From positions 1,646,281-1,710,280 of the forward strand of contig CAJXKD010000001.1 of assembly GCA_913055735.1 (NCBI GenBank): DNA of 64,000 nucleotides. The letters are read 5' to 3'. Positions 40,525 through 44,318 of this stretch are shown piece by piece. Each line of letters opens with the position of its first letter. Position 1 is the first letter of the stretch. The notes below the pieces were generated by a model, which was given only the letters and a program-made list of their open reading frames with translations, was not told where the DNA came from and did not search any database. The DNA is from an uncultured Rhodospirillales bacterium. GTDB lineage: Bacteria > Pseudomonadota > Alphaproteobacteria > Rhodospirillales > UBA2165. A program made the position numbers and the translations under genes.

Positions 40525-40547
40525 AAAAAACCCGCCGAAACGGCGGG
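40525..40547 (-). terminator. Intrinsic terminator of infC
   Basis: On the minus strand CCCGCCG pairs with CGGCGGG around a TTT loop and is followed by six T residues, 29 bases after the infC stop codon. Confidence 0.9.
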
Positions 40548-40575
40548 TTGGTTTCCTTTGGTGTGCAGGAGGCAA

Positions 40576-41228: not shown

Positions 41229-43169
41229 TCAATTGCCCGGAGGCGCTGCTTCAGCCGCCAGTCTAGCGACTGCCTCATTCAGCGCAAGAATTTCTTGGTC
41301 CTTGCCGCCCAGCCGGCGCAGTGCCACCGTCTTTTCCGCCGCCTCGCGGCCACCGACGACGACGATCAGTGGGATATGGGCGTGGCTGTGTTCGCGGATC
41401 TTATAGTTGATCTTCTCGTTGCGGAGATCGAGATCGGCGCGCAAGCCCGCCGCCTTCAGAGCCGCCTGAACCTCGCGGGCATAATCGTCCGCATCGTTGG
41501 TGATCGTCGTCACCACCGCCTGGACCGGGGCCATCCACAGCGGAAAGCGACCGGCATAATGCTCAATGAGAATGCCGAGGAAGCGTTCGAACGATCCCAG
41601 GATCGCGCGGTGCAGCATCACCGGGCGGTGCTTCTCATTGTCCTCGCCGATATAGGTGGCATCCAACCGTTCTGGCAGCACGAAATCCACCTGCAGCGTG
41701 CCGCACTGCCAATCGCGGCCGATGGCGTCGCGCAGGACGAACTCCAGCTTGGGGCCATAGAAAGCACCCTCGCCTGGGTTCATGAGGACGTCGATCCCGG
41801 CGGCCTCGCTCGCTTCCATCAGGGCTTTCTCGGCACGGTCCCAGACCGCGTCGTCGCCGGCCCGCACTTCCGGCCGGTCCGAGAACTTGATGAGGAAATC
41901 GTCGAAACCCAGATCGGCATAGATCGACGACAGCAGCTTGATGAACTCTGCCGTTTCGGACTCGATCTGCTCTTCGGTACAGAAAATGTGGGCGTCGTCC
42001 TGCGTAAAGGCACGCACCCGCATCAGGCCGTGCAGCGCGCCCGACGGTTCGTTGCGGTGACAGGAACCGAATTCCGCCATGCGCAACGGCAAATCGCGGT
42101 AGCTCTTGATGCCCTGATTGAAGATCTGCACATGGCAGGGGCAGTTCATGGGCTTGATCGCCAGCACCCGGTCCTCTGATTCGGAAACGAACATGTGCTC
42201 GCGGAACTTCTCCCAATGGCCGGAATGTTCCCAGAGAACGCGGTCGACCAGTTGCGGCGTCTTGACCTCGCGGTAGTCGGCGGCCTCCAGGCGGCGGCGC
42301 ATATAAGCTTCGATTGTGCGGTAAAGCGTCCAGCCTTTCTCGTGCCAGAATACGGCGCCAACGGCTTCTTCCTGCAGGTGGAACAGGTCCATGGAGCGAC
42401 CGAGACGGCGGTGATCGCGTTTCTCGGCCTCCTCCAGCATGTGGAGATAGGACTTGAGTTGTTTGTCGTTGGCCCACGCCGTCCCGTAGATGCGTTGCAG
42501 CATCTCGTTGCGGGAATCGCCGCGCCAATAGGCGCCCGCAAGCTTCATCAGCTTGAAGGCCTTGCCGAGCTTGCCCGTCGACGGCAGGTGCGGCCCGCGG
42601 CACAGGTCCATCCAGTCGCCCTGACGATAGATTGTCACCTGTTCACCGGCGGGGATGCTGCCGATAATCTCGGCCTTGTAATCCTCGCCGATGGATTTGA
42701 AATGCTTGATGGCTTCGTCGCGGTCCCAAACCTCGCGGACGATCTCCAGGTCCTGATCGACGATTGCCTGCATGCGCTTTTCGATCTTCTCGAAATCGTC
42801 CGTCGAAAAAGGCTCCTTGCGCGCGAAATCGTAGTAGTAGCCGTTTTCGATCGCGGGGCCGATGGTCACCTGCGTGCCGGGGAACAACTCCTGTACCGCC
42901 TGCGCCATCACGTGCGCGGCGTCGTGGCGCAGCAGTTCCAGCGCGTCTTCGTCTTTCGCGGTGACGATGGAGAGATCGGCGTCGTCCTCGATCTCGCGGT
43001 TCAAATCGCGCATTTCGCCGTCAACCCGCACGGCCAGTGCCGCCTTGGCAAGACCCGGTCCGATATCGGCGGCCACATCCGCGCCGGTCACGGGACGTGG
43101 AAATTCGCGCACGCTGCCGTCCGGGAGCGTGAGTTTCACGTTGCCGCTCTGCTGTCCACCGTCTGCCAT
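41229..43169 (-). CDS. thrS: Threonine-tRNA ligase
   Basis: The 646-residue class II synthetase has a TGS domain (about 8-70, '[11 protein letters not shown]'), a tRNA editing domain with '[18 protein letters not shown]' (about 80-95) and later '[12 protein letters not shown]', the catalytic core with '[12 protein letters not shown]' (zinc cysteine), '[31 protein letters not shown]' and '[14 protein letters not shown]', and the anticodon domain at the C-terminus. ATG 43169 follows GGGGAAG. Upstream there is a threonine-rich leader peptide and attenuator (43228-43383), so its own expression should rise when charged tRNA-Thr falls. infC follows after 116 bases. Confidence 0.98.
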
Positions 43170-43227: not shown

Positions 43228-43258
43228 AAAAAACCCCCCCGTTTTCGGCGGGAGGGTT
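43228..43258 (-). terminator. Attenuator terminator of the thrS leader
   Basis: On the minus strand AACCCTCCCGCCG (43258-43246) pairs, with small bulges, with CGGGGGGGTT (43241-43232) around AAAA and is followed by six T residues and then GATTTT. The 5' arm also contains CCCTCCC, which can pair with GGGAGGG in the leader peptide region, giving an alternative antiterminator. Confidence 0.75.
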
Positions 43259-43287
43259 GGATGTCCGCGGTCAACGTGCGCCAGCGG

Positions 43288-43347
43288 TCACGGCCCCTCC
43301 CAATGGGGAGTCGTGGTGGTAGTGGTCGTGGCGGTTATCGTCAACAT
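43288..43347 (-). CDS. Threonine-rich leader peptide of thrS
   Basis: The 19-residue frame MLTITATTTTTTTPHWEGP has nine threonine codons, seven of them consecutive (ACG, ACC, ACT, ACC, ACC, ACG, ACT). It lies between a consensus promoter and the attenuator hairpin upstream of thrS. The ATG falls at or within a base or two of the predicted transcription start, so it would be translated as a leaderless message, as is known for the trp leader peptide of Sinorhizobium meliloti. Ribosome stalling at the threonine codons would cover CTCCCC (43310-43305) and free GGGAGGGG (43301-43294) to form the antiterminator. Confidence 0.8.
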   Translation of the reverse strand: MLTITATTTTTTTPHWEGP

Positions 43348-43354
43348 GGCGTTT

Positions 43355-43383
43355 TATATCGGCAATTCGGCGCAGGCTGTCAA
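43355..43383 (-). promoter_or_regulatory. Promoter of the thrS leader
   Basis: On the minus strand a consensus TTGACA (43383-43378) is followed after exactly 17 bases by GATATA (43360-43355), and TATAAA overlaps it two bases later. The predicted start at about 43348 coincides with the ATG of the leader peptide. Confidence 0.72.
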
Positions 43384-43391
43384 GTTGGGGG

Positions 43392-44318
43392 CTAGCTGGG
43401 CAAAGCGGCAACAACCTCGTCGACCGAGAGATCGTCGAGAGTCTCGCGCCGCAGGATTTCCACATGGGGCCCCCGTTGGGCACAAAGCGTGGGATCGGAA
43501 GCGAAGGAATACAAAACCACCGACGGGCATCCGACCAGGGCCGCCGCGTGCATGGGGCCCGTGTCGTTACCGACGGCACAGGCGGCTTCGCGGGCAAGTT
43601 GGATGATGTCGGCAATGCTCGTTTCCCCCGCGAGAGACCGGGCGTGGGGCGCCACCTCGGCAATCTCTTCCAGAAGATCGCTTTCGTTTCCGCCGCCCAA
43701 AAGCACAGGTTGCAGGCCGCGCGCCATCAGTGTGAGGGCTAATTGGCCATATTTTTCCGCGGGCCAGCGTTTGTCGGGCCGGTGCGCCGCGCCGCCGGGC
43801 ACCAGCAGCGCGTAGCGCTCGTCGAGACCGAAACGTGCCGTTTCCGCCTCGACCCAGGAAAAGCTCGGCGGGTGTACGTCAGGAATACCGGCCATGGCCA
43901 ACTGTTCGGCCTGACGGTCCAAGGTGTGCATGAAATCTCGGTTGGGGTTGTCGTGGGGAAGCGAACAGCCGCCGGCGATACCCGACCACTCGGGCCCATT
44001 ATTGTCGTCCGCGGCCATCAGGCGGAAGTATGAACTCGACCGGTCGGATGTTTGCAAATCATAGACGCGGCGGAAACGCACGCTGCGTAAACGTCGGCGC
44101 AGCGAGAGCCATCCCTTCACCTGCCAAACCTTGGGCCGTGTATCGATCCACACGCGGTCGAACCACGGTGACGCTTCGGCAAAGGCGCGGAACGGTTCGG
44201 TGGTCAGCAGCGTGATAGTCGCGTCCGGATGATGAGTGCGGATGGCGGCAAAGGGGCCGGCTGCCTGCAGGAAATCCCCCAGCGCGCCAAGCTTGATGAC
44301 CAGGATCTGGTCGGTCAT
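43392..44318 (-). CDS. Glycosyltransferase family 9 (heptosyltransferase-like)
   Basis: The 308-residue protein begins 'ILVIKLGALGDFLQAAGPFAAIR', the nucleotide-sugar domain start of GT9, and has 'LLVPGGAAHRPDKRWPAEKYGQLA' and 'CAVGNDTGPMHAAALVGCPSVVLY', the donor-binding signature. Such enzymes add heptoses to the lipopolysaccharide core at the inner membrane face; the exact sugar is unknown. It follows a GT4 glycosyltransferase gene after four bases. Confidence 0.9.
   Translation of the reverse strand: MTDQILVIKLGALGDFLQAAGPFAAIRTHHPDATITLLTTEPFRAFAEASPWFDRVWIDTRPKVWQVKGWLSLRRRLRSVRFRRVYDLQTSDRSSSYFRLMAADDNNGPEWSGIAGGCSLPHDNPNRDFMHTLDRQAEQLAMAGIPDVHPPSFSWVEAETARFGLDERYALLVPGGAAHRPDKRWPAEKYGQLALTLMARGLQPVLLGGGNESDLLEEIAEVAPHARSLAGETSIADIIQLAREAACAVGNDTGPMHAAALVGCPSVVLYSFASDPTLCAQRGPHVEILRRETLDDLSVDEVVAALPS

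What the first reader, a model, noticed from the sequence alone, without database searches (positions are those of the whole stretch)
43228..43383. Complete threonine attenuator with a leaderless leader peptide upstream of thrS
On the minus strand there is a TTGACA-17-GATATA promoter, then a 19-codon frame with nine threonine codons (seven consecutive) starting at the predicted transcription start, then a terminator with six T residues before thrS. Three pairings are visible. Segment 1 (CTCCCC, from within the last threonine codon, 43310-43305) pairs with segment 2 (GGGAGGGG, 43301-43294). Segment 2 pairs with segment 3 (CCCTCCC, 43256-43250). Segment 3 pairs with segment 4 (43241-43232) to form the terminator. 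Stalling on threonine codons would mask segment 1 and release antitermination. In E. coli thrS is controlled by ThrRS binding its own mRNA and in Firmicutes by T-boxes, so ribosome-mediated attenuation of thrS is unusual, and I am not aware that it has been described for alphaproteobacteria.
Basis: partly seen in the sequence, partly recalled or inferred. Interest (0 to 1): 0.93.

Follow-up and report, generated by a model that had tools for sequence, protein, structure and literature searches.

The report
Threonine-sensing switch before thrS gene
A 19-codon reading frame with nine threonine codons and two predicted, mutually exclusive RNA hairpins lies just upstream of the gene for the enzyme that loads threonine onto tRNA, and it likely turns that gene on when charged threonine tRNA runs short; the same arrangement sits before the same gene in 23 related genomes.

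Summary
On the minus strand: TTGACA-17-GATATA, ATG 7 nt after the -10, MLTITATTTTTTTPHWEGP*, a terminator, then thrS. It is the only run of seven ACN codons in the 3.7-Mb genome. Promoter spacing (17) and stop-to-T-tract distance (55-62 nt) hold in 24 of 24, a leader start 7-10 nt after the -10 in 19. Predicted mechanism: a ribosome finishing the leader breaks this hairpin (thrS off); one stalled on Thr codons leaves it intact (thrS on). The 1:2 protector matters in few relatives. Similar Thr leaders precede a ThrRS without editing domain in eight other genomes. Precedents: ribosome-mediated attenuation, leaderless trpL in Sinorhizobium, a predicted two-Thr leaderless thrL before thrS in Streptomyces lividans. 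Nothing was tested at the bench.

The parts
43378..43383 (-). -35 element TTGACA of the predicted thrS promoter, just past the end (43392) of the upstream glycosyltransferase-9 gene
   Evidence: TTGAC[ACT] with a 17-nt spacer in 24 of 24 leaders
43355..43360 (-). -10 element GATATA (predicted)
   Evidence: GATATA, GATATT or a one-base variant of GATATA in 24 of 24 leaders
43288..43347 (-). leader frame MLTITATTTTTTTPHWEGP*, nine Thr codons; ATG 7 nt after the -10, so predicted leaderless
   Evidence: start 7-10 nt after the -10 in 16 of 21 leaders and in 3 of 3 later ones
43305..43310 (-). segment 1 (protector arm, CTCCCC)
   Evidence: effect on folding predicted in own locus (0.28 untranslated against 0.87 stalled) and in 5 of 21 leaders in all
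43294..43301 (-). segment 2: 5' arm of the outer antiterminator stem
43284..43287 (-). 5' arm of the inner antiterminator helix (CCGC), next to the stop codon
   Evidence: own pairs from the fold; covarying helix 2 of 21 leaders
43265..43268 (-). 3' arm of the inner antiterminator helix (GCGG)
43250..43256 (-). segment 3: shared by antiterminator (3' arm) and terminator (5' arm)
43232..43258 (-). intrinsic terminator hairpin (segments 3 and 4)
43228..43233 (-). T tract of the terminator
41232..43169 (-). thrS, full-length threonyl-tRNA synthetase (TGS, SAD, core and anticodon domains); no second copy found in the genome
40576..41097 (-). infC (named from sequence and gene order by recall, not from a search), next gene of the likely thrS-infC unit
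40529..40549 (-). terminator-like hairpin just after infC, probable end of the thrS-infC unit

Best explanation
The leader is likely a ribosome-operated transcription attenuator that reads the supply of Thr-tRNA(Thr) and sets how much polymerase runs on into thrS. Seen in the sequence: a Thr-rich frame, a terminator before thrS, and complementary segments for a second hairpin that would use the same segment 3. Inferred: transcription starts at or within a base or two of the ATG, so a 70S ribosome loads at once. With enough charged tRNA it runs through the Thr codons to the UGA. There it would cover segment 2 and the stop codon, both part of the predicted antiterminator stem, so segment 3 pairs with segment 4 and transcription ends. 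When Thr-tRNA is short the ribosome would wait in the Thr run, segments 2 and 3 and the inner helix would zip up downstream of it (a hairpin predicted to be stronger than the terminator), and thrS, probably with infC, would be transcribed. The off signal is thus predicted to be translation termination at a stop codon placed inside the antiterminator, more than the 1:2 protector hairpin.
For: Architecture in own locus. A covariance model from 12 leaders finds 9 unused ones in the order (317 genomes) and class (385 genomes) samples; all 21 matches above 37 bits lie directly before thrS, and three more in family f95 do too. Terminator stem: 92.5% of cells paired against 87.0% in shuffles, covariation score 0.216 against 0.132, 0 of 500 shuffles as high. 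Antiterminator: 83.7% of cells paired against 74.1%, 23 two-sided changes against a shuffled mean of 7.0, covariation score 0.335 against 0.170, 0 of 500 as high on each; all five inner-helix pairs change on both sides in some leader; sliding the partner by one column drops the score to 0.160 or less. Antiterminator predicted stronger than terminator, with at least one stop-codon nucleotide paired, in 21 of 21. With a ribosome masked on the third-last Thr codon segment 3 is mostly paired (mean 0.78), at the stop mostly free (0.21); difference over 0.3 in 20 of 21. Thr is spelled by all four codons (ACC 80, ACG 54, ACT 19, ACA 8 in 20 leaders), as expected if the amino acid is what is kept.
Against: No expression data; the transcription start is predicted. 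Without any ribosome the antiterminator is also predicted in most relatives (mean 0.69), so the switch may read translation in general as well as Thr. A stall at the last Thr codon would mask part of segment 2 (mean 0.42; difference to the stop state over 0.3 in 7 of 21). In L050 the stop state stays paired (0.69). Shuffled spacer sequence already pairs segment 3 at a mean of 0.50; the real value is reached by at most 5% of shuffles in 11 of 21 leaders only. Two measures do not exceed shuffles: pairs with a two-sided change (289 of 500; 74 of 500) and further pair types (399 and 123 of 500). The alignments were fitted to the structures counted. Own antiterminator: z only -1.6 (mean of 21: -2.9). 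Four of 24 leaders have a 5' UTR and one has no ATG/GTG/TTG start. Most relatives lack it: 17 of 317 genomes of the order carry it before thrS (strict filters), and 0 of 80 named thrS loci match.
Confidence: 0.88

Rival explanations
1. The leader mainly senses translation in general: with no ribosome the strong antiterminator forms by default, and only active leader translation shuts thrS off; threonine is one of several inputs. This overlaps with the best explanation rather than excluding it.
For: In 16 of 21 leaders a Thr stall does not raise segment-3 pairing by more than 0.2 over the untranslated leader; antiterminator stronger than terminator in 21 of 21.
Against: A conserved run of Thr codons before the Thr enzyme, spelled with four codons, has no evident reason to exist in a pure translation sensor. 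In own locus the 1:2 hairpin is predicted to suppress the default (0.28).
Confidence: 0.2
2. ThrRS represses its own mRNA translationally through a tRNA-like operator, as recalled for E. coli thrS, and the small frame is incidental.
For: Such autoregulation exists for E. coli thrS (recalled; a mention of autoregulation by E. coli threonyl-tRNA synthetase was seen in PMC2965389, passages).
Against: A Thr frame, a terminator and a covarying antiterminator are conserved before thrS, while many leader-less relatives have only a short stretch between promoter and thrS (17 of 22 upstreams printed, judged by eye). No tRNA-like operator was searched for.
Confidence: 0.04
3. The hairpin is only the terminator of the upstream glycosyltransferase gene and the Thr run is a chance low-complexity stretch.
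For: The upstream gene ends at 43392, close to the -35; ACCACG-type repeats do give false model matches elsewhere (L201, L203).
Against: Only run of its kind in the genome; conserved promoter spacing and stop-to-T-tract distance in 24 of 24; the predicted promoter lies between the upstream gene and the hairpin.
Confidence: 0.02

Closest known systems
trp-type ribosome-mediated attenuators (E. coli trp, thr, his operons, recalled; pheST for a synthetase)
   Same: Leader frame rich in the codon of the cognate amino acid, terminator, mutually exclusive antiterminator; pheST is a synthetase precedent (passage in PMC1262725)
   Different: Target is thrS; ATG predicted at the 5' end; leader stop codon lies inside the predicted antiterminator stem; protector hairpin has little predicted effect in most relatives
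Leaderless trpL attenuator (rnTrpL) of Sinorhizobium meliloti
   Same: Alphaproteobacterial attenuator RNA that starts with the ATG of the leader frame (passages in PMC7298713 and PMC10117765)
   Different: Trp codons, trpE(G) target; sequence kinship not tested
thrL upstream of thrS in Streptomyces lividans TK24
   Same: Leaderless small frame with Thr codons upstream of thrS, proposed attenuator (passages in PMC8079986)
   Different: Two Thr codons (MKRVRPFLETTPGFVPAR), one hairpin and no clear terminator according to the paper; Actinobacteria
Threonine operon leader, Rfam RF00506
   Same: Thr-rich leader peptide and terminator; weak match over the leader, 16.3 bits, and 27.2 bits over the L236 leader
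   Different: Far below the gathering score of 55; enterobacterial thrABC target (recalled)
T-box control of thrS/thrZ in Firmicutes
   Same: Same target and same signal, uncharged tRNA(Thr) (recalled)
   Different: Direct tRNA binding, no leader peptide (recalled); no Rfam family reached its gathering score in the window

Membership tests
Ribosome-mediated transcription attenuator | Short frame with a run of codons for the amino acid of the regulated gene | tested here: met
   Nine Thr codons before thrS; frame conserved in 24 loci, 23 of them with ATG or GTG. Translation itself not shown.
Ribosome-mediated transcription attenuator | Intrinsic terminator between the leader frame and the gene | tested here: met
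Ribosome-mediated transcription attenuator | Mutually exclusive antiterminator sharing an arm with the terminator | tested here: met
   As a prediction supported by covariation; not shown physically
Ribosome-mediated transcription attenuator | Protector (1:2) hairpin that holds the antiterminator off when no ribosome stalls | tested here: inconclusive
   Predicted effect in own locus and in 5 of 21 leaders in all
Ribosome-mediated transcription attenuator | Readthrough rises when the cognate charged tRNA is scarce | not testable with these tools
   needs a bench reporter
Leaderless leader-peptide attenuator (trpL type) | 5' end of the RNA is the ATG of the leader | tested here: inconclusive
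   Start codon 7-10 nt after the -10 in 19 of 24; no mapped 5' end
Rfam Thr_leader RF00506 | Match at or above the gathering score (55 bits) | tested here: not met
   16.3 bits
T-box | Match to the T-box family at gathering score | tested here: not met
   0 matches of any Rfam family in the window at gathering score
E. coli-type thrS operator | tRNA(Thr)-like stems bound by ThrRS | not tested
   no specific search made

The most novel reading that the evidence does not exclude
Proteobacteria hold an unrecognised class of threonine-reading attenuators on ThrRS genes, invented or spread at least twice: on full-length thrS in several alphaproteobacterial families, and on an editing-domain-less ThrRS paralogue in other Alphaproteobacteria and beyond the class. 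In the thrS form the leader's own stop codon is built into an antiterminator stronger than the terminator, so that finishing the peptide, not a protector hairpin, is the off switch.
Probability: 0.6. Interest if true: 0.75.

Novelty: new variant of a known kind. Interest (0 to 1): 0.6.

Why it matters
If true, thrS has a further mode of control by charged tRNA, beside the enzyme-binds-mRNA route of E. coli and the T-box of Firmicutes (both recalled), so the same need is met by unrelated RNA devices. The stop codon inside the predicted antiterminator is a clean, testable design for attenuators without a strong protector hairpin, and the ATG-first start asks how a leaderless message keeps pace with polymerase. 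The patchy presence among close relatives (both states within genus g5) makes gain and loss of a regulator traceable. The parallel leader on a ThrRS that lacks the editing domain hints at a stress-induced, error-prone or inhibitor-resistant spare enzyme (speculation).

Tried and rejected
T-box or other listed RNA family: no gathering-level match in the window. The weak anti-hemB match over the leader (19.3 bits against 49.5) was followed: the family did not match any of 12 leader or paralogue loci up to E 1, and it also hit other terminators of the window weakly, so I take it as chance. The 91 bases before pheS were read by eye: no Phe-rich frame stood out. Weak model matches were treated as chance: of the 38 fetched loci below 37 bits only L174 held a ThrRS gene by tblastn, and that proved to be a truncated paralogue. 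L201 and L203 are ACCACG repeats. Short ThrRS frames dropped from the paralogue count: G829 and G1108, whose contigs end there, and G923, G826, G905, G812 and G1121, judged cut by the contig end from their coordinates or partial match alone. One search did not list all its matches, so the five new paralogues are those among the rows listed. A thrS tree of 122 rows (22 of the 24 leader loci in it; quick method, SH-aLRT only) needs at least 10 changes of leader state (4 forced by starred branches; shuffled mean 20.5, 0 of 500 as low), so the label is clustered but not one simple vertical history; loss against transfer was not resolved.

Full report
WHAT IS THERE. On the minus strand the sequence reads TTGACA (43383-43378), 17 nt, GATATA (43360-43355), 7 nt, ATG at 43347, and a 19-codon frame MLTITATTTTTTTPHWEGP* ending in UGA at 43290-43288. 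A terminator of 10 pairs follows at 43258-43232, then six T, then 58 nt to the ATG of thrS (43169). thrS encodes a full-length enzyme with TGS, SAD, core and anticodon domains, and no second ThrRS gene was found in the genome (the other match is a 29% partial one). The upstream gene, a glycosyltransferase of family 9, ends at 43392, so the predicted promoter would be thrS's own. The next gene, infC by sequence and order (recalled), is followed by a terminator-like hairpin at 40549-40529, so thrS-infC is the likely unit.

MORE THAN CHANCE. The pattern of seven ACN codons occurs once in the genome. In 55 thrS upstreams of relatives, own included, 12 carry a small frame with at least 4 Thr in 9 codons, and all 12 reach 5; shuffled upstreams reach 5 in 8 of 2700 cases and the reverse strand in 1 of 135. 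A 13th (L036 = L154) carries the run without a usual start codon. A covariance model from the 12 was run on 317 genomes of the order and 385 of the class. Matches above 37 bits: 17 in the order, and own plus 4 in the class sample, 21 distinct. All 21 lie directly before thrS; 9 of them had not been used in the model. A second model found 7 of 11 genomes in the order of G499, three of them new, also before thrS. Total 24 loci, 6 families, 11 genera. In all 24 the -35/-10 spacing is 17 and stop to T tract is 55-62 nt; the leader start lies 7-10 nt after the -10 in 19. Four have a 5' UTR (L010, L011, L027, L151) and one (L154) no ATG, GTG or TTG. The peptides end in -GP or -GS just before the stop; one has eleven Thr in a row (L151).

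STRUCTURE. In the model-fitted alignment of 21 the terminator stem pairs in 92.5% of cells (shuffled 87.0%). A further helix between the leader stop codon and segment 3 stood out. In the realigned set all five of its pairs change on both sides in some leader, with versions such as GUCCG/CGGAC, GGUUG/CAACC and GGAA/UUCC; together with 2:3 the covariation score is 0.335 against 0.170 in shuffles and at most 0.160 when slid. The counts of pairs with a two-sided change (7 against 5.1) and of pair types (16 against 14.3) do not clearly exceed shuffles. Folding from 13 nt before the stop codon to segment 3 pairs segment 2 with segment 3 (6-8 pairs) in 21 of 21, as one unbranched hairpin except in L027, at -19.4 to -29.9 kcal/mol against -13.9 to -18.3 for the terminator, with at least one nucleotide of the stop codon paired in 21 of 21. 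In own locus the predicted pairs include 43301-43295 with 43256-43250, 43291-43289 with 43263-43261, and 43287-43284 with 43268-43265. Limits: the alignment leans towards the structure; against mononucleotide shuffles the mean z is -2.9, in own locus only -1.6.

HOW IT LIKELY WORKS. Folding the RNA that is free of a masked ribosome, up to the end of segment 3 (footprint 9 nt past the A-site codon), gives mean pairing of segment 3 of 0.78 for a stall at the third-last Thr codon, 0.72 second-last, 0.42 last, 0.21 at the stop codon, 0.69 with no ribosome, and 0.50 in a shuffled control of the third-last state. The third-last-minus-stop difference exceeds 0.3 in 20 of 21 leaders (second-last 17, last 7; with a 12-nt footprint 17, 11 and 3). 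The real value is reached by at most 5% of shuffles in 11 of 21, own among them (3%). So a stall in the Thr run is predicted to favour the antiterminator and completion to favour the terminator; L050 is the exception (0.69 at the stop). The untranslated leader behaves like the stalled one in most relatives; own locus is one of five where the stalled state exceeds it by more than 0.2, as expected if the 1:2 hairpin holds the default down. This departs from the classic picture, in which the protector hairpin keeps the gene off without translation (recalled). Shown: sequence, conservation, covariation. Inferred: transcription start, translation, stalling, termination, response to threonine.

RELATIVES WITHOUT IT. 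Of 22 further upstreams printed, 17 show TTGAC[AT] and a -10 of the kind CTACATT close to thrS, and by eye no such terminator; genus g5 holds both states. On a thrS tree of 122 rows (22 leader loci) the leader state needs at least 10 changes. G008 (L022) keeps a terminator but has no Thr run, perhaps decay.

A SECOND CLASS. The class, order and phylum searches also brought up L174, L200 and L202: Thr-run leaders with a different terminator before a ThrRS of about 400 residues. A protein search of 249 phylum genomes and 120 of the order of G996 gave, among the rows listed, five more such genes away from contig ends (L205, L206, L207, L208, L236), and all five have a Thr-bearing small frame and a terminator-like hairpin upstream (the hairpins were read by eye; L205 to L207 have only three consecutive Thr codons). 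All eight proteins match the core and anticodon domains but not TGS or SAD, and each frame has an in-frame stop within 198 nt upstream. Six of the eight genomes (G353, G876, G879, G895, G926, G996) show a second ThrRS match, listed as a full-length frame for G353, G926 and G996; G252 and G605 were not searched for one. The remaining matches of the phylum search (398 genomes, 5 with a match, own included) were a Thr leader before an isochorismatase-like gene (L204, named by recall) and two repeat artefacts (L201, L203).

WHAT IS KNOWN. Searches for thrS with attenuation or leader-peptide terms (listings capped) in the open-access library led, among the papers opened, to one direct precedent: S. 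lividans thrL before thrS, leaderless, two Thr, no clear terminator (PMC8079986, passages); that paper also lists leaders before alaS, trpS and leuS. Leaderless trpL of S. meliloti is documented (PMC7298713, PMC10117765, passages), and the latter notes a Thr/Lys-rich possible leader (SEP5) before another gene. pheST in gammaproteobacteria and trpS/leuS in Streptomyces are synthetase precedents (PMC1262725, passages). The text held of Naville and Gautheret 2010 has no 'thrS' (PMC2965389, passages). PMC4833913, PMC10272879, PMC2330054 and PMC7509114 (passages) add nothing on a thrS leader peptide. Lopatovskaya 2010 is not held, so absence from print is not shown. The kind is known; target, lineage, RNA family and the stop-in-antiterminator layout make it a new variant.

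Noticed in passing
L174, L200, L202 (=L235), L205-L208, L236, upstream of the truncated ThrRS: A ThrRS paralogue of about 400 residues without TGS and SAD (editing) domains is preceded by a Thr-bearing small frame and a GC-rich hairpin with T run in all eight cases seen, mostly with the ATG close after a promoter-like site.
   Followed up: partly
L154 (G005), leader before thrS: Thr-run leader with no ATG/GTG/TTG start; AGGAG precedes in-frame ATC/ATT codons, so a weak AUU/AUC start is possible.
   Followed up: no
L022 (G008), upstream of thrS: Promoter and terminator of the same type but no Thr run; looks like a decaying attenuator.
   Followed up: no
L073 and L086 (Reyranella-like), upstream of thrS: Different small frames M[DE]R...AP..TT..RT* ending in Thr just before the stop, followed by GC-rich hairpins: possibly another Thr-reading leader.
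   Followed up: no
L204 (G814), upstream of an isochorismatase-like gene: Leader MNQPRIASTTTTTTARGGS* with a terminator-like hairpin before a gene that is not a ThrRS (gene type by recall).
   Followed up: no
window 40454-40200, minus strand: Between infC and rpmI: a weak promoter match (40454-40426), a strong terminator-like hairpin (40347-40319) and two further T-rich stretches; a possible second attenuated unit rpmI-rplT-pheST.
   Followed up: partly
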